From: Marinomonas aquiplantarum
Lineage (GTDB): Bacteria > Pseudomonadota > Gammaproteobacteria > Pseudomonadales > Marinomonadaceae
Reading direction: 5' to 3'
DNA: 64,000 nucleotides
Assembly: GCF_003314975.1 (NCBI RefSeq)
Contig: NZ_QNRF01000001.1
Location: 620,001-684,000, forward strand
The first letter of the stretch is position 1, and every line of letters begins with the position of its first letter. A program made the position numbers and the translations under genes. Of this stretch, positions 21,932 through 27,437 are shown in pieces. The notes below the pieces were generated by a model. It worked only from the letters and a program-made list of their open reading frames with translations, ran no database searches and was not told the origin of the DNA.

Positions 21932-22243
21932 CTAGATCGATGTTTTTTCGGTGATGGCATCGCACCAAAATTCAGCGTAGGAGTCACAAAAGAGTTCGAT
22001 TTTTATGGTGCAGAAATCGCGCTCGGTTTGTACTTCTTCACTAATCGTAATCTGCTGAAAATCCATCATTTCCATCACATTTTGCGGATCATCAATCCGC
22101 TCGAAGGCTAAGGTGATGCTTTGTCCTTCACGTTCAAAAGTCACTAACAAAGTGCTTTGCACTTGGTCTAAAGCGCGCTTTACCACTAATTGAGTGACTT
22201 TCCAGCTAGCATCAAATTCATACAGGGTGTTGTATTCAGACAC
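21932..22243 (-). CDS. Small protein of unknown function
   Basis: A 103-residue acidic protein opening with GTG, supported by AAGGA 8 nt upstream. It has no signal peptide or membrane helix. The composition (alternating beta-prone segments, many Glu/Asp, three Cys near the C-terminus in DFCTIKIELFCDSYAEFWCDA) suggests a small soluble alpha/beta or beta fold. I do not recognise a family. It lies between a LysR gene (convergent, 31 bp away) and a periplasmic phosphatase gene on the same strand. Confidence 0.65.
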   Translation of the reverse strand: MSEYNTLYEFDASWKVTQLVVKRALDQVQSTLLVTFEREGQSITLAFERIDDPQNVMEMMDFQQITISEEVQTERDFCTIKIELFCDSYAEFWCDAITEKTSI

Positions 22244-22350
22244 GGATTTTCCTTGTAAATAAACAAATTCAACAACGGTGGTTGAAGAATAAAATACGCC
22301 TAATCAAAACAATGAGCTAGTGTATTTTACTGGTATTCCTAGTCCGCGAC

Positions 22351-22926
22351 TCATTGAGTATTTGGCAGGTAGCGCCCTATGACTTCAATGGTTTGTTGTG
22401 GAGAAACCGCGATAAGAATCATCTCCCCAGAGCGAGGAAATATGCCAGTTAATGCCGTGATGTTGACTTGGTGCGTGACAAACAGAGCTTTTTCTTGTGG
22501 CGGCAGTGTGATCAACTTCTGACGTAGCGCTTGCGTTTGCGACTCCGCGGTACTGCGATCCGCGAAAAATGAATTCAACATGGGCTCGGGTTGCACATTC
22601 CCCATTGCCATTAACTGAGCGGTCTCTAAACATCGACACCACCGACTACTGAACACATAATCAAAACCCACACCCTGATCTCGTAGCGTTTGACCAATTT
22701 GTCTTGCTTGCTCTCGTCCAGTGTCATTTAAAAGGCGCTGAGTGGAACAGTCCTCGACACGAAAATGACTAGGATCACCCGTTCCTGGCGCAAGTGCATG
22801 ACGCATCAACACATGCACACCTGGCTTTAATAGGGATTCGGTAATGGTTGGCTCGGCTTGTAACCCAGAGCAAAAAAACACCAACGCGACAAATATCCAA
22901 TGGCGAATTTGAGTCGAGCTTTGCAT
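22351..22926 (-). CDS. Exported histidine phosphatase superfamily protein
   Basis: A 191-residue branch-1 histidine phosphatase with an N-terminal signal peptide (about 24 residues, ending LQAEP), so probably periplasmic. The catalytic His lies in VHVLMRHALAPGTGD, the conserved Arg in FSSRWCRCLETA, and the second His in LFVTHQVNITALTG. It resembles small SixA/Ais-like phosphatases. The substrate is unknown; a sugar- or lipid-linked phosphate in the envelope is possible. AGGAGA precedes the ATG. It marks the left border of the 685-bp region before the Fic gene. Confidence 0.83.
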   Translation of the reverse strand: MQSSTQIRHWIFVALVFFCSGLQAEPTITESLLKPGVHVLMRHALAPGTGDPSHFRVEDCSTQRLLNDTGREQARQIGQTLRDQGVGFDYVFSSRWCRCLETAQLMAMGNVQPEPMLNSFFADRSTAESQTQALRQKLITLPPQEKALFVTHQVNITALTGIFPRSGEMILIAVSPQQTIEVIGRYLPNTQ

Positions 22927-23177
22927 CCTGACTTTCTCCTAGTAACCGACAGTATTGATTAAGTGTATACGAGAGAAAATGGCATGTTGGGTTAGAAAGA
23001 GATGGTTGGAAAGAAATGAAAATACAGACCCGTTTTTGTGATGGGAATGGCCGTCTTGAAAGGCTTTATCGAAAGGATTTCTGTCAACATAGCTTGGTTA
23101 TTTTCTTAAAAATAAGCTCAACATGGATGCTTTGGTGTCCAAGAGTGATAAATCAAAGTGTCGAATATCATATATCA

Positions 23178-23220
23178 AGGTCTACAGATTATTACCTTTG
23201 AGGTAGCTTTGTGTAGACCT
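23178..23220. repeat. Nested inverted repeat (potential cruciform or structured RNA)
   Basis: Outer 9-bp arms AGGTCTACA (23178-23186) and TGTAGACCT (23212-23220) enclose inner 5-bp arms TACCT (23193-23197) and AGGTA (23201-23205). No T-tract follows on either strand, so it is not a typical terminator. Confidence 0.6.
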
Positions 23221-23280
23221 CTAACCTCTGGATTTTCCCGTTCAGTAAAATACACTGACGAGTACTCGATTTGCATTTCA

Positions 23281-23334
23281 CACTTTTACGCGCAGAAAAG
23301 TGCGAGTTTTTACATTTTTATGCGCATAAAAGTG
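23281..23334. promoter_or_regulatory. Tandem 22-bp palindromes, candidate operator upstream of fic
   Basis: Two copies, 23281-23302 and 23313-23334, differ at only three positions (consensus half-site CAYTTTTAYGC, with GCGCA at the centre) and are spaced 32 bp start to start, about three helical turns. The second copy contains the perfect 16-bp palindrome TTTTATGCGCATAAAA. This is the pattern of a paired dimer operator. It lies about 280 bp upstream of fic. The cognate regulator is unknown; HipB, encoded 1.6 kb downstream, is one candidate. Confidence 0.65.
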
Positions 23335-23611
23335 TAGCTTGGTTCTGGTTGAGTATAAAACGGCCGCTTAATATCCATCTTTCTTCTTTAAGTTGCCCTT
23401 GTTGGTTAAGTTTTAACCATGTGGGCATGGACAAATACTATATGAATATCACGCTCTTATTTTTGTTCAGCAATGTGAATGAGCAGATATGTAAAGTTAA
23501 AAAGATATAAAAAAGTGCGAAAGCTATATATTTGATGCGATATATGTATGATTTTTTATGAAATTTATACATTACCTTTTGGCCAAGTATAAAAAAGGAA
23601 GGGATTGAATC

Positions 23612-24103
23612 ATGTCTACGCCCATTGCATCACTGCCACTGGATAATATAGAACAATGGGAGACGCGTGCGGTGCTTAAAAAAGCGGCCGAAGCGCATCG
23701 CTACTTGGCTGAACTGAAAGGTGTGGCTGCGAGTATTCCTAACGAAGCTATTTTAATAAATACATTGTCTTTGCAAGAGGCAAAAGACAGTTCTGAAGTT
23801 GAAAATATCGTCACCACGCACGACGAGCTGTATAAAGCCAACTTGTTCGAAGAAGCCATTGTTAACCCTGCTACTAAGGAAATGCAAGATTACGCTTTTG
23901 CTTTAAAACAAGGTTTTCAACGTGCTCGAAACAGTAAATTAATCCGCCTAAGTGATATCTTATCCATCCAGCAAAACTTTGAAGATAACAATGCTGGGTT
24001 ACGTAAACTACCAGGCACCGACCTTAAAAATGCTCGAACTGGTGAAGTCGTGTACACGCCACCACAGCATGCGGATGAGATTGCTAACTTGATGGATAAC
24101 TAA
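23612..24103 (+). CDS. Fic protein, N-terminal half with inhibitory helix
   Basis: The 163 residues before the in-frame TAA. It carries the N-terminal Fic domain and the self-inhibitory motif (S/T)xxxE(G/N) as S60-S-E-V-E64-N65, typical of class-II Fic proteins, where this Glu blocks productive ATP binding. The catalytic loop is not in this half. AAGGAAGGG precedes the ATG at 23612. Translated alone it would be a free inhibitory module without an active site. Confidence 0.65.
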   Translation: MSTPIASLPLDNIEQWETRAVLKKAAEAHRYLAELKGVAASIPNEAILINTLSLQEAKDSSEVENIVTTHDELYKANLFEEAIVNPATKEMQDYAFALKQGFQRARNSKLIRLSDILSIQQNFEDNNAGLRKLPGTDLKNARTGEVVYTPPQHADEIANLMDN

Positions 24104-24691
24104 GTGCAGTTTATCAATGATGATGAGCTGAGTGATGCTGACCCATTGGTAAAAATGGCGATTATCCATCATCAATTTGAAAGTATTCACCCTTTCTATG
24201 ATGGTAACGGTCGAACAGGCCGCATATTGAATATTCTGTATTTGGTAACACAAGATCTGCTCAACTTGCCCGTGTTATACCTAAGTCGTTTTATCATCCA
24301 TAACAAGGCGGACTACCATGCTAACTTGCAGGCGGTAAGGGATACAGGAGAGTGGGAGTCTTGGTTACTGTTTATGTTAGATGGAATCATCGATACGGCA
24401 CAAAACACAGTATCTCTTATTACAGAAATGAAAACCCTAATGCATAACGTCAAACGGGGGATTCGTGAGCAGCTACCAAAAATTTACAGCCAAGATCTGC
24501 TCAACAACTTGTTCTACCACCCCTACACAAAAATAGACTTCTTGGTTGAAGAGCTAGGTGTGACACGCATTACCGCAACGAAGTACTTAGAATTGTTGGT
24601 CGAACATGGATTCTTAGTAAAGCAAAAAGTAGGGCGAGCAAACTACTACATAAATGAGCCACTGTGTGCGTTGCTGATAGCGCATAGTTGA
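24104..24691 (+). CDS. Fic protein, C-terminal catalytic half
   Basis: The 195 residues after the stop, opening with GTG immediately adjacent to TAA. It contains the complete Fic motif HPFYDGNGRTGR at residues 29-40 (catalytic His29, phosphate-binding Asn/Arg) and a C-terminal winged-helix-like segment (KIDFLVEELGVTRITATKYLELLVEHGFLV). Fic enzymes usually transfer AMP from ATP to Ser/Thr/Tyr of target proteins. No clear ribosome site precedes the GTG, so expression would depend on reinitiation or readthrough. If made, it lacks the inhibitory helix in cis. Confidence 0.65.
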   Translation: MQFINDDELSDADPLVKMAIIHHQFESIHPFYDGNGRTGRILNILYLVTQDLLNLPVLYLSRFIIHNKADYHANLQAVRDTGEWESWLLFMLDGIIDTAQNTVSLITEMKTLMHNVKRGIREQLPKIYSQDLLNNLFYHPYTKIDFLVEELGVTRITATKYLELLVEHGFLVKQKVGRANYYINEPLCALLIAHS

Positions 24692-24826
24692 GTTTATAAA
24701 AAGGTTACTGAGTTAAGAGGCATCTTGAGTAACTTTGAGATCGTATAAAACTCAGAAACTTATGTTATGTATTGCGTGACGATAGAACAAACTACGGTAG
24801 CAGTCGAAGTCACTATCACATATAAA

Positions 24827-24842
24827 ATATCCTTTATGATAT
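24827..24842. promoter_or_regulatory. Inverted repeat upstream of hipB
   Basis: ATATC, six bases, GATAT about 90 bp before hipB. HipB antitoxins usually autorepress through short palindromes here. The arms are only 5 bp in an AT-rich region, so the evidence is weak. Confidence 0.3.
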
Positions 24843-24929
24843 ATGCTAGTTAATCATTTTTGTTTTTTGTGATAATTTGATCTGTTTTGATGTATATTTT
24901 ATTTTTAAGATATAGAAAGGCATATCGAT

Positions 24930-25256
24930 ATGAGCTATGTAACAGAGCAGATACTAGAAAGCCTTCGAGAAGCTCGGATACGTAAGGGGTTTAGCCAAAG
25001 AGAGCTGAGCACGCGTTCGGGTGTGCCGCAAAGCCATATTTCGAAAATCGAGTCTGGTGGCGTTGATTTAAGAATATCCAGTTTGATAGCCCTTGCCCGT
25101 GTGCTCGACTTAGAGCTATTTGTCGCACCTAAAAAGTCTGTACCTGCCATTAAGTCGATTATCCGCAGTAGCAAGGGTACTCAGAATAACAGCCTTAGCG
25201 ATGAAGGTGAGCCAGTGTCGCCTGCCTACCAGTTAGAGGAAGACGACGATGACTAA
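24930..25256 (+). CDS. hipB: HipB-like XRE-family antitoxin/regulator
   Basis: A 108-residue protein with an N-terminal Cro/C1 helix-turn-helix (IRKGFSQRELSTRSGVPQSHISKIESGGVDLRISSLIALARVLDLELF, about residues 17-62) and an acidic tail ending EEDDDD. By family it binds the operon promoter and neutralises HipA. AGAAAGG lies upstream of the ATG. Its stop lies 8 nt inside hipA, so the two are translationally coupled. It could also bind the fic upstream palindromes, but nothing in the sequence proves this. Confidence 0.88.
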   Translation: MSYVTEQILESLREARIRKGFSQRELSTRSGVPQSHISKIESGGVDLRISSLIALARVLDLELFVAPKKSVPAIKSIIRSSKGTQNNSLSDEGEPVSPAYQLEEDDDD

Positions 25257-26478
25257 TCCTGTCTCTACGCTCAATGTTTTGCTTTACGGTGAACTCATTG
25301 CGACGATCACTAATGTGGGCAATGACAGAACGCTATTTGCCTTTACGGATACGTACATTGATGATGAATCGCGGCCTATGTTGGGGCTTGGCTTTAAAGA
25401 TTCGCTAGGTGGCTTGCTGACTAACTTCAAACCGACCCAAACCAAGTTAACGCCGTTTTTCTCCAACCTTTTGCCAGAAGAAACCATGTGTCATTATTTG
25501 GCAGAACGTGCCGGTGTGAACCCTGCGCGGGAGTTTTTTCTATTGTGGGTATTAGGACAGGATTTAGCAGGTGCGATCACGGTTGAACCGGCTGATGGTG
25601 ACGCGCTGCCGCCTAATGTGCATCAAGATATTGAAGATGAAACAAAAATTGAAGCGCCAATGCGCTTCTCATTGGCGGGAGTGCAGTTGAAGTTTTCAGC
25701 CGTGCAACAGGCTAACGGTGGTTTGACCATTCCTGTAACAGGCAAAGGTGGCTCTTGGATTGTGAAATTGCCATCGTCTCGATTTGACGCTGTGCCAGAA
25801 AATGAATATTCGATGATGGAACTGGCTCGAATGTTGGGAATGGATGTGCCAGAGACTCAGCTACTTTCCATTAATCAGATAGCAAACATTCCGAAGGGGA
25901 TTGGTAAATTCGGCAGCTCTTTTGAAAATGCACAGGCCTTTGCGATAAAACGCTTTGACCGTGTTGATGGTCAAGCTGTGCATATTGAGGACTTTGCGCA
26001 AGTGTTTGGCGTCTATCCGCAAGATAAATACAAAAAAGCCAGTATGCGCAATATTGCTCAAGTGATTGGTATCGAAGGACAAGACAAAGACATTGCCGAA
26101 TTTACTCGCAGATTGGTGTTCAATACTCTCATTGGGAATGCTGATATGCATTTGAAGAATTGGTCTGTGATTTACAAAGACAAGCGTACCGCATCGATTG
26201 CGCCTGCTTATGACTTTGTCTCGACTATTCCTTATATCCCCGATGATAGTGCGTCGTTAAAGGTGAGTCGGAGCAAGAAGTTCAGCGATTTCACGCTGGA
26301 TGAATTATCACACTTAGCGGCTAAAGCCATGCTGCCAGAAAAATTGGTGTTGGACACCGCCAAGCAAACAGCGGAAGGCTTTCGTGAAGTATGGGCGAAA
26401 GAGAAAAATCATTTACCGCTGACCAAATCCATGATTGAAGCCATAGATACGCACTTAAGAAGCATTCCGCTAGGCTAA
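25249..26478 (+). CDS. hipA: HipA-like serine/threonine kinase toxin
   Basis: A 409-residue HipA-family kinase. The N-terminal domain (about 1-110) is followed by the HipA_C kinase core. The glycine-rich loop region is SLAGVQLKF (about 141-149), the catalytic Asp299 lies in GNADMHLKNW, and the metal-binding Asp322 lies in APAYDFVST. Both key aspartates are present, so it is probably active. E. coli HipA phosphorylates glutamyl-tRNA synthetase and induces persistence; other HipA proteins have other targets, so the target here is open. It overlaps hipB by 8 nt. Confidence 0.9.
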   Translation: MTNPVSTLNVLLYGELIATITNVGNDRTLFAFTDTYIDDESRPMLGLGFKDSLGGLLTNFKPTQTKLTPFFSNLLPEETMCHYLAERAGVNPAREFFLLWVLGQDLAGAITVEPADGDALPPNVHQDIEDETKIEAPMRFSLAGVQLKFSAVQQANGGLTIPVTGKGGSWIVKLPSSRFDAVPENEYSMMELARMLGMDVPETQLLSINQIANIPKGIGKFGSSFENAQAFAIKRFDRVDGQAVHIEDFAQVFGVYPQDKYKKASMRNIAQVIGIEGQDKDIAEFTRRLVFNTLIGNADMHLKNWSVIYKDKRTASIAPAYDFVSTIPYIPDDSASLKVSRSKKFSDFTLDELSHLAAKAMLPEKLVLDTAKQTAEGFREVWAKEKNHLPLTKSMIEAIDTHLRSIPLG

Positions 26479-26570
26479 CATGAGAACCGACGCGTACAGA
26501 AATGCTGAGGCGTCGGCCACATTAGGTTTAGGTGAAGAGTTCTGAGAGAGGTAACTCTCAATCTAGGAAC

Positions 26571-27437
26571 CTATTCAATATTCTGGATCTGTTCTCTCAT
26601 CTGTTCAATCAATACCTTCAATTCTACTGCGCTCTGCGTGGTTTCCACCACAATCGACTTAGACGATAGCGTGTTGGCTTCGCGGTTGAGTTCTTGCATT
26701 AAGAAGTCTAAGCGGCGGCCAATCGGGCCTTTTTGTTTAAGCTGACGGCGGACTTCTTTGGTGTGGGTCGCGAGGCGATCCAGTTCTTCGGCTACGTCGG
26801 CTTTTTGGGCCAATAGGACGATTTCCGCTTCCACGCGCATTGGGTCGAGTTCGACTTTGGCGGCTTCCAGTTTGTCGGTCAGGTTTTGTTTTTGCGCAGC
26901 AATGATACCAGGCAGTTTGTCTTGCACTTCGGCCACAATGGCGTCAATGCTATCAAGACGTTGTTCTATGATGGCGACCAGTTGTTCGCCTTCGCGCAAA
27001 CGCATTTGGATGAGTTCGTCTACCGCCTTGGCGAAGAGTTCCGCTACGGCTTTTTTGATGGTCTCGGCGTCGTCGCTGGTGTCACTTAAAATGCCCGGCC
27101 ATTGTAGAATTTGCAGTGGCGATGGGGTTTTGATGCCATCAAACCAAGTGCCAAGTTGTTGTACGGCGTTGGCCAAGGCTTGGGCGTTTTCTGGTTTGAT
27201 GGTTAAGCTGGTGGCGGCTTTGTCGACCGCTTGGAAGCGCAGTTGGCATTCTAGCTTGCCGCGGTTTAGCTTTTTTCTTAACAGGTCGCGAAAGGAAAAT
27301 TCCAATTCACGAAAGGCTTCCGGTAAGCGGAAGTTAGGTTCTAAATAGCGTTGGTTTACTGAGCGAACTTCCCAACTGATAGTGCCCCAGTCGTAGCTGG
27401 CTTCTTGGCGTGAGAAGGCGGTCATGCTTGCTGTCAT
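26571..27437 (-). CDS. yicC: YicC family endoribonuclease
   Basis: A 288-residue YicC/YloC protein, recently described as an endoribonuclease family. The start MTASMTAFSRQEASYDWGTISWEVRSVNQRYLEPNFRLPEAFRELE is the N-terminal YicC domain. The C-terminal DUF1732 segment includes GRRLDFLMQELNREANTLSSKS and VELKVLIEQMREQIQNIE. It is divergent from rph, the conserved neighbour. The usual gmk partner is 17 kb away because of the accessory block. Confidence 0.95.
   Translation of the reverse strand: MTASMTAFSRQEASYDWGTISWEVRSVNQRYLEPNFRLPEAFRELEFSFRDLLRKKLNRGKLECQLRFQAVDKAATSLTIKPENAQALANAVQQLGTWFDGIKTPSPLQILQWPGILSDTSDDAETIKKAVAELFAKAVDELIQMRLREGEQLVAIIEQRLDSIDAIVAEVQDKLPGIIAAQKQNLTDKLEAAKVELDPMRVEAEIVLLAQKADVAEELDRLATHTKEVRRQLKQKGPIGRRLDFLMQELNREANTLSSKSIVVETTQSAVELKVLIEQMREQIQNIE

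What the first reader, a model, noticed from the sequence alone, without database searches (positions are those of the whole stretch)
23612..24691. Fic AMPylase gene split by a single in-frame TAA, with a GTG directly after it
Two frames in the same phase spell one complete class-II Fic protein. The first half carries the inhibitory motif S60-xxx-E64-N65; the second carries the catalytic HPFYDGNGRTGR. The stop is followed at once by GTG. If the second half is translated by reinitiation, the catalytic domain would be free of its inhibitor, giving a split toxin/antitoxin-like pair from one locus. If not, it is a recent nonsense allele. Either way it is a clean single-codon event.
Basis: partly seen in the sequence, partly recalled or inferred. 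Interest (0 to 1): 0.75.

Follow-up and report, generated by a model that had tools for sequence, protein, structure and literature searches.

The report
Phage-defence gene broken by stop
A bacterial gene of a known anti-phage family (SoFic, an AMP-transferring enzyme) carries one premature stop codon in the middle of its enzyme core, so it is most likely a recently inactivated copy in a region where defence genes come and go, and not a new two-part toxin system.

Summary
In detail: ORFs 23612-24103 and 24104-24691 lie in one frame, separated only by TAA 24101-24103, with GTG following at once. Both are pieces of one SoFic-type class II Fic protein. The 'freed catalytic domain' reading is not supported. 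The stop falls inside the Fic domain, within a helix of a modelled intact relative, so the C piece lacks half of the Fic core and, by homology, the dimer helix that EcSofic needs for toxicity (PMC12249575). The stop column holds one invariant sense residue in 120 of 120 homologues. Among strong matches only this gene has an internal stop: 1 of 11 in the genus, 1 of 44 in the class sample. The GTG is an inherited codon (10 of 15 loci) without a Shine-Dalgarno signal. Both pieces are otherwise undamaged, so the event is recent. The gene sits with hipBA in a variable slot beside yicC. Verdict: probably a recent nonsense allele of a known phage-defence gene. Sequencing error and weak reinitiation are not excluded.

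The parts
23612..24103 (+). 5' piece of the fic gene (163 aa): Fic_N domain, inhibitory motif S60-xxx-E64-N65, first half of the Fic core up to the flap strand
   Evidence: model of an intact relative
23595..23604 (+). strong Shine-Dalgarno-like sequence ahead of ATG 23612
   Evidence: read; anti-SD duplex -11.2 kcal/mol, second strongest of 36 starts tested (this one included)
24101..24103 (+). in-frame TAA inside the Fic domain, at a column that is one invariant sense residue in the homologues examined
   Evidence: 120 of 120 homologues; 57 of 57 loci with a sense codon there
24104..24691 (+). 3' piece of the fic gene (195 aa): catalytic loop HPFYDGNGRTGR, rest of the Fic core, SoFic-like C-terminal domain; opens with GTG
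24930..25256 (+). hipB-like HTH gene
25249..26478 (+). hipA-like kinase toxin gene
   Evidence: 15 further copies 89-94% identical plus one 93% fragment in the genus search
23303..26571 (.). variable slot: fic and hipBA lie between two stretches that align with sister genome G036, which holds other DNA here
   Evidence: G036 aligns to 21950-23302 and from 26572 on
26571..27437 (-). yicC, whose 3' end borders the slot; yicC is a published island integration site
   Evidence: PMC8978831 passages

Best explanation
This is a SoFic-type (class II Fic, AMPylase) anti-phage gene that sits with hipBA in a variable slot beside yicC. It was recently inactivated by a single nonsense mutation in the middle of the Fic core. 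Shown here: the stop, the family of both pieces, the invariance of the interrupted column, the lack of further damage, the absence of the stop in the relatives examined, and the variable slot. Inferred: the gene came in by horizontal transfer; ribosomes start well at ATG 23612, make a 163-aa fragment without catalytic loop or C-terminal domain, and stop; little or no C piece is made, so the allele is null for AMPylation and phage defence. Loss is plausible because SoFic proteins are toxic to the cell when expressed (shown for EcSofic in PMC12249575), so such a copy may be costly.
For: Stop column: one invariant sense residue in 120 of 120 full-length homologues; 57 of 57 loci examined have a sense codon there. 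The closest of the proteins fetched, P0245, is intact and 96.9% and 96.4% identical to the N and C pieces. In the genus search 1 of 11 matches of at least 367 bits has an internal stop, this one; in the class sample 1 of 44. Recency: the window departs from 2 of 102 (N) and 3 of 123 (C) columns conserved at 90% or more; 59 and 46 of the 120 homologues depart as often or more. Relatives show other, unshared breaks: G103 and G214 change frame, and L003, L025, L038, L050 and L051 are broken or fragmentary, as expected of sporadic loss. The break is inside the domain.
Against: No transcript, protein or phenotype data. The lack of further decay fits equally a sequencing error or a still-used gene. 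The start lies within reinitiation distance of the stop. Amino-acid changes unique to the window exceed those unique to L057 in the C piece with 8 of 8 comparison sequences and in the N piece with 6 of 8 (1 tie, 1 fewer). In the C piece L132 is closer to L057 than the window is, so it is no outgroup there; with the four more distant ones (L011, L012, L013, L009) the counts are small: C 10:6, 9:7, 10:3, 8:5; N 4:3, 6:3, 3:7, 5:5.
Confidence: 0.85

Rival explanations
1. Sequencing, polishing or assembly error: the gene is intact in the organism.
For: Both pieces are otherwise undamaged, the sequence rests on one draft assembly of 30 contigs, and the N piece stands alone in the protein database, with one member on one contig.
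Against: It lies in a 712 kb contig of an assembly rated 100% complete and 0.02% contaminated; a single wrong base in a finished contig is uncommon (recalled).
Confidence: 0.07
2. Termination-reinitiation: ribosomes that stop at TAA restart at the adjacent GTG, both halves are made and they reassemble non-covalently into a working (perhaps weakened) Fic dimer.
For: A distance of 0 nt is inside the -8 to +6 nt window that PMC10666635 gives as indicative of termination-reinitiation (passages). Both halves look preserved. ATG 24092, three codons before the stop, has a middling anti-SD energy (-5.9 kcal/mol, 15% of random sites as good), so extra ribosomes could reach the junction.
Against: The GTG looks inherited, not evolved: 10 of 15 loci aligned at that residue and 10 of 32 genes have GTG there as an internal codon. 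Its own upstream anti-SD energy is -3.1 kcal/mol, no better than random (49% of random sites are as good). The break is inside a helix. No conserved split form was seen: of the best 120 of 935 hits listed, only the window's own N piece is at 90% identity or more over its whole length.
Confidence: 0.05
3. The C piece is made alone, from GTG 24104 or ATG 24155, and acts as a constitutively active AMPylase free of its inhibitor, with the N piece as antitoxin.
For: The inhibitory motif and the catalytic loop do lie on different pieces.
Against: The C piece has only positions 54-93 of the 93-position Fic domain. EcSofic needs alpha1 dimerisation for toxicity, and SoFic E73 (taken as the inhibitory-motif glutamate, inferred) coordinates ATP (PMC12249575). 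Neither start has an SD signal (-3.1 and -2.9 kcal/mol).
Confidence: 0.02

Closest known systems
SoFic / EcSofic, class II Fic anti-phage AMPylases (PADLOC SoFic PDLC03963; NCBIfam NF046030; PDB 3eqx, 3zcn, 3zec, 9tc4)
   Same: Both pieces match the same models and the same solved structures in order; inhibitory motif, catalytic motif and C-terminal domain are all present in sequence
   Different: The reading frame is cut by TAA inside the Fic domain; five stop-free same-genus relatives score 367-379 bits on NF046030, like this gene (373), below its cut-off of 550, so it looks like a sister subfamily of the SoFic equivalog (inferred)
fic-hsdM-hsdS arrangements of close relatives (for example a Vibrio vulnificus plasmid, Alteromonas, Nitrincola)
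   Same: The window's fic belongs to the same close group (74% identity or more in the C piece); in 9 of 14 loci of that group an hsdM-like gene starts just downstream of fic
   Different: In the window hipBA follows instead; the two HsdM matches of this genome (54% and 39%) are on other contigs
yicC-integrated genomic islands with hipAB (GI21 of Shewanella putrefaciens CN-32 and relatives; PMC8978831, passages)
   Same: hipBA lies immediately beside the 3' end of yicC in a slot that varies between related genomes
   Different: No integrase-sized ORF and no second yicC end were found here; GI21's genes are ordered hipA-hipB, here hipB-hipA

Membership tests
SoFic-type class II Fic protein | Catalytic motif HPFx(D/N)GNGRxxR (motif recalled) | tested here: met
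   HPFYDGNGRTGR in the C piece
SoFic-type class II Fic protein | N-terminal inhibitory motif (S/T)xxx(E/G)N (motif recalled) | tested here: met
   S60-SEV-E64-N65 in the N piece; S60, E64 and N65 invariant in 43 aligned proteins
SoFic-type class II Fic protein | Fic_N plus Fic plus SoFic-like_C domain order | tested here: met
   split over the two pieces
SoFic-type class II Fic protein | One uninterrupted reading frame | tested here: not met
   TAA 24101-24103; 43 of 44 class-sample matches have no stop inside the match
SoFic-type class II Fic protein | NCBIfam NF046030 equivalog cut-off (550 bits) | tested here: not met
   pieces 130.9 and 229 bits; genome search 373.3 bits; five stop-free same-genus relatives also fall below it
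SoFic-type class II Fic protein | AMPylation and phage protection | not testable with these tools
   needs expression and a plaque assay
Functional split gene or toxin-antitoxin pair by reinitiation | Split at a domain boundary, conserved across relatives | tested here: not met
   split inside the Fic domain and inside a helix; none of the relatives examined shares the stop
Functional split gene or toxin-antitoxin pair by reinitiation | Start codon within reach of the stop | tested here: met
   GTG at 0 nt; the window given in PMC10666635 is -8 to +6 nt
Functional split gene or toxin-antitoxin pair by reinitiation | Ribosome-binding signal for the second start | tested here: not met
   -3.1 kcal/mol, 49% of random sites as good; reinitiation may not need one
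Functional split gene or toxin-antitoxin pair by reinitiation | Both halves produced as protein | not testable with these tools
   needs proteomics or a reporter fusion
yicC-integrated hipAB island (GI21 type) | Integrase gene and flanking att repeats | tested here: not met
   no ORF over 96 aa in 23303-26571 other than the fic pieces, hipB and hipA; the yicC 3' end has no second copy in the window
yicC-integrated hipAB island (GI21 type) | hipAB adjacent to the yicC end of a variable slot | tested here: met

The most novel reading that the evidence does not exclude
The stop-GTG junction supports termination-reinitiation, so that the two halves are made in fixed proportion and reassemble into a weakened Fic enzyme: a natural 'split' SoFic that keeps phage defence while lowering its toxicity.
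Probability: 0.04. Interest if true: 0.5.

Novelty: new member of a known kind. Interest (0 to 1): 0.12.

Why it matters
If it is the nonsense allele argued here, it is one more example of turnover of costly abortive-infection genes at an island hotspot: useful for annotation (mark as a pseudogene), little more. If the halves were both made and active, it would show that a class II Fic enzyme can work as two chains.

Tried and rejected
Conserved internal start at the Met equivalent to residue 161: 12 of the 120 hits listed (of 4716) are exactly 199 aa, and 11 of these 12 begin at that Met, which first looked like a recurrent short form. A test on 32 genes (32 offered, 32 scored; 29 have ATG there) found no Shine-Dalgarno signal ahead of it: mean -2.83 kcal/mol against -3.30 for synonymous reshuffles, mean percentile 0.68. 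The consensus shows no other Met between the first residue and it, so gene callers would fall on it whenever the 5' part is missing (inferred). Rejected.

Conserved split form: among the best 120 of 935 hits listed, none but the window's own N piece is at 90% identity or more over its full length. The window's own C piece is not among the 120 listed, which I cannot explain with certainty; it may be clustered under a full-length protein outside the length filter.

dN/dS against L057: N piece dN 0.063 and dS 2.17, C piece dS not computable, so the ratios say little about the recent branch.

Promoter and terminator scan: 2 promoter-like sites against 7.2 expected, 7 terminator-like against 2.6 expected, one of them at 24665-24686 over the end of fic; not used. 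Literature: four searches on Fic, SoFic, restriction systems and split or premature stop (listed 20 of 20, 10 of 4935, 10 of 18 and 10 of 10 papers) showed, in the titles and abstract starts, none on a split SoFic or a fic-hsdM link. I opened only PMC12249575 (abstract, passages and all of Results), PMC8978831 (passages) and PMC10666635 (passages). The G036 slot ORFs were not searched for domains.

Full report
What is there. The window holds two same-phase ORFs, 23612-24103 (163 aa) and 24104-24691 (195 aa), separated by nothing but TAA 24101-24103; the second begins with GTG directly after it. Pfam puts Fic_N in the first and the end of the Fic domain plus the SoFic-like C-terminal domain in the second. 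NCBIfam and PADLOC assign both to SoFic, at consecutive positions, and both match solved SoFic structures in the right order.

The genome. The window is part of contig C1 (712 kb) of a 3.77 Mb, 30-contig assembly, and this gene is its only match to the Fic family PF02661. The genus set holds 48 genomes, and the family set is the same 48.

Is the split shared? Not in anything examined. When the two pieces are placed as separate fragments on an alignment of the 120 full-length homologues listed (the best 120 of 7999), exactly one column lies between them, and it holds the same residue in 120 of 120. Of 57 loci that passed a filter of at least 45% identity over at least 180 residues (the window's own copies left out; L050 and L051 did not pass), 57 have a sense codon there. 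In the genus search 1 of 11 matches of at least 367 bits has an internal stop, namely this one; three much weaker matches (53.1 bits or less) also hold a TAA. In a sample of 369 genomes of the class, 1 of 44 matches at E of 1e-60 or better has one, again this one. The closest intact protein among those fetched, P0245, lies on a 99 kb contig and is 96.9% and 96.4% identical to the two pieces.

Is it old or recent? Apart from the stop the gene is not visibly decayed. It departs from 2 of 102 and 3 of 123 strongly conserved columns (N and C), which is usual for the family: 59 and 46 of 120 homologues depart as often or more. Relative-rate counts against L057 lean toward more change in the window, mostly in the C piece, but are small with the more distant comparison sequences. 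So the stop is recent, or an error, or the gene is still in some use. Elsewhere in the family, breaks are sporadic and of other kinds. L127 (G103), L129 (G214) and L003 change frame within the gene, L025 and L038 lack an internal part and change frame, L051 lacks an internal part, and L050 is a C-terminal fragment. Not judged: G051, whose match begins about 120 bases from a contig end; G361, which matches only from position 76 of the model though its frame is open; and L008, L020 and L030, which are open to a contig end.

Could the second half be a freed toxin? This is unlikely for three reasons. First, the stop does not separate inhibitor from enzyme. The C piece matches only positions 54-93 of the 93-position Fic domain, and in the AlphaFold model of P0245 the interrupted residue lies inside helix 154-169. 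That model has mean pLDDT 81.7 from 43 sequences; block 161-170 has 93, but residues 58-61, 126-135 and 196-198, which include parts of the inhibitory motif and catalytic loop, are under 50. Second, in EcSofic both dimerisation through alpha1 and the C-terminal domain are needed for toxicity, and SoFic E73 (E70 in EcSofic) is among the residues that coordinate ATP (PMC12249575, Results read). I take E73 to be the glutamate of the inhibitory motif (inferred from the alignment). By homology the C piece would lack alpha1 and that glutamate. Third, the GTG does not look like an evolved start: 10 of 15 loci aligned at that residue and 10 of 32 genes carry GTG there as an internal codon. The region ahead of it has no ribosome-binding signal (-3.1 kcal/mol; 49% of 2000 random sites as good), whereas ATG 23612 has -11.2; the mean of 36 starts is -5.16. 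In favour of reinitiation stand the distance, since 0 nt falls within the -8 to +6 nt window described for termination-reinitiation (PMC10666635, passages), and a middling signal (-5.9 kcal/mol, 15% of random sites as good) ahead of ATG 24092, three codons before the stop. That keeps weak reinitiation possible.

Surroundings. Downstream lie hipB (24930-25256) and hipA (25249-26478), then yicC on the other strand. The sister genome G036 (YicC 99% identical) aligns with the window at 21950-23302 and again from 26572 on, but holds about 6 kb of other DNA between, including ORFs of 412 and 1125 aa. G040 and G027 show neither this fic nor hipBA there. Other genomes of the genus have hipBA near yicC without this fic (G022, G017, G005 and G011). 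fic and hipBA are thus cargo of a variable slot at the 3' end of yicC. yicC is a published island integration site, and the GI21-type islands related to those that go there carry hipAB (PMC8978831, passages). No integrase-sized ORF and no second yicC end were found here, so I do not file it as such an island. In the close group of this fic, 9 of 14 loci (L002-L013, L125, L132) have an hsdM-like gene directly downstream; L003, L009, L012, L013 and L125 do not. The window's copy also stands without it: the two HsdM matches of its genome (54% and 39%) are on contigs C4 and C13.

How it most likely works. Shown: a strong start signal, a stop in the enzyme core, an invariant column lost, no shared split in what was examined. 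Inferred: the locus makes a truncated, inactive N-terminal fragment, and the strain has lost this AMPylase and with it one possible phage-defence module. Loss without replacement is plausible because wild-type Sofic is toxic when expressed (PMC12249575) and the contents of the slot differ between related genomes.

Limits. No reads, other strains of the species, transcripts or peptides were available; a sequencing error cannot be excluded. The only functional evidence is by homology.

Noticed in passing
23280-23336: A palindromic element (two 23-nt arms, 87% complementary) at the left edge of the variable slot. Related copies lie in other genomes of the genus in loci with hipBA or fic (L121, L122, L124, L125, in both orientations), but only this one place was found in this genome.
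   Followed up: partly
L002, L004-L008, L010, L011, L132: In the close group of this fic, an hsdM-like type I methylase gene starts directly downstream in 9 of 14 loci, which suggests a fic-hsdM-hsdS defence cassette.
   Followed up: partly
L010:4615-6173: One of two Nitrincola sp. A-D6 fic-hsdM loci seems to have its hsdM split between two frames at about residue 192, while the other (L011) matches in one piece.
   Followed up: no
L117:4563-10003: In the sister genome G036 the same slot holds a 412-aa ORF that reads like a HipA and an 1125-aa ORF that reads like a P-loop NTPase (my reading, no domain search run), again defence-like cargo.
   Followed up: no
one search hit list: 12 of the 120 listed C-terminal SoFic homologues are exactly 199 aa, and 11 begin at the same conserved Met; most likely a gene-caller effect on copies without a 5' part.
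   Followed up: yes
L123:5642-5776: In G017 a second copy of the yicC 3' end lies 1.9 kb beyond yicC with hipBA further on, as expected of stacked island insertions.
   Followed up: no
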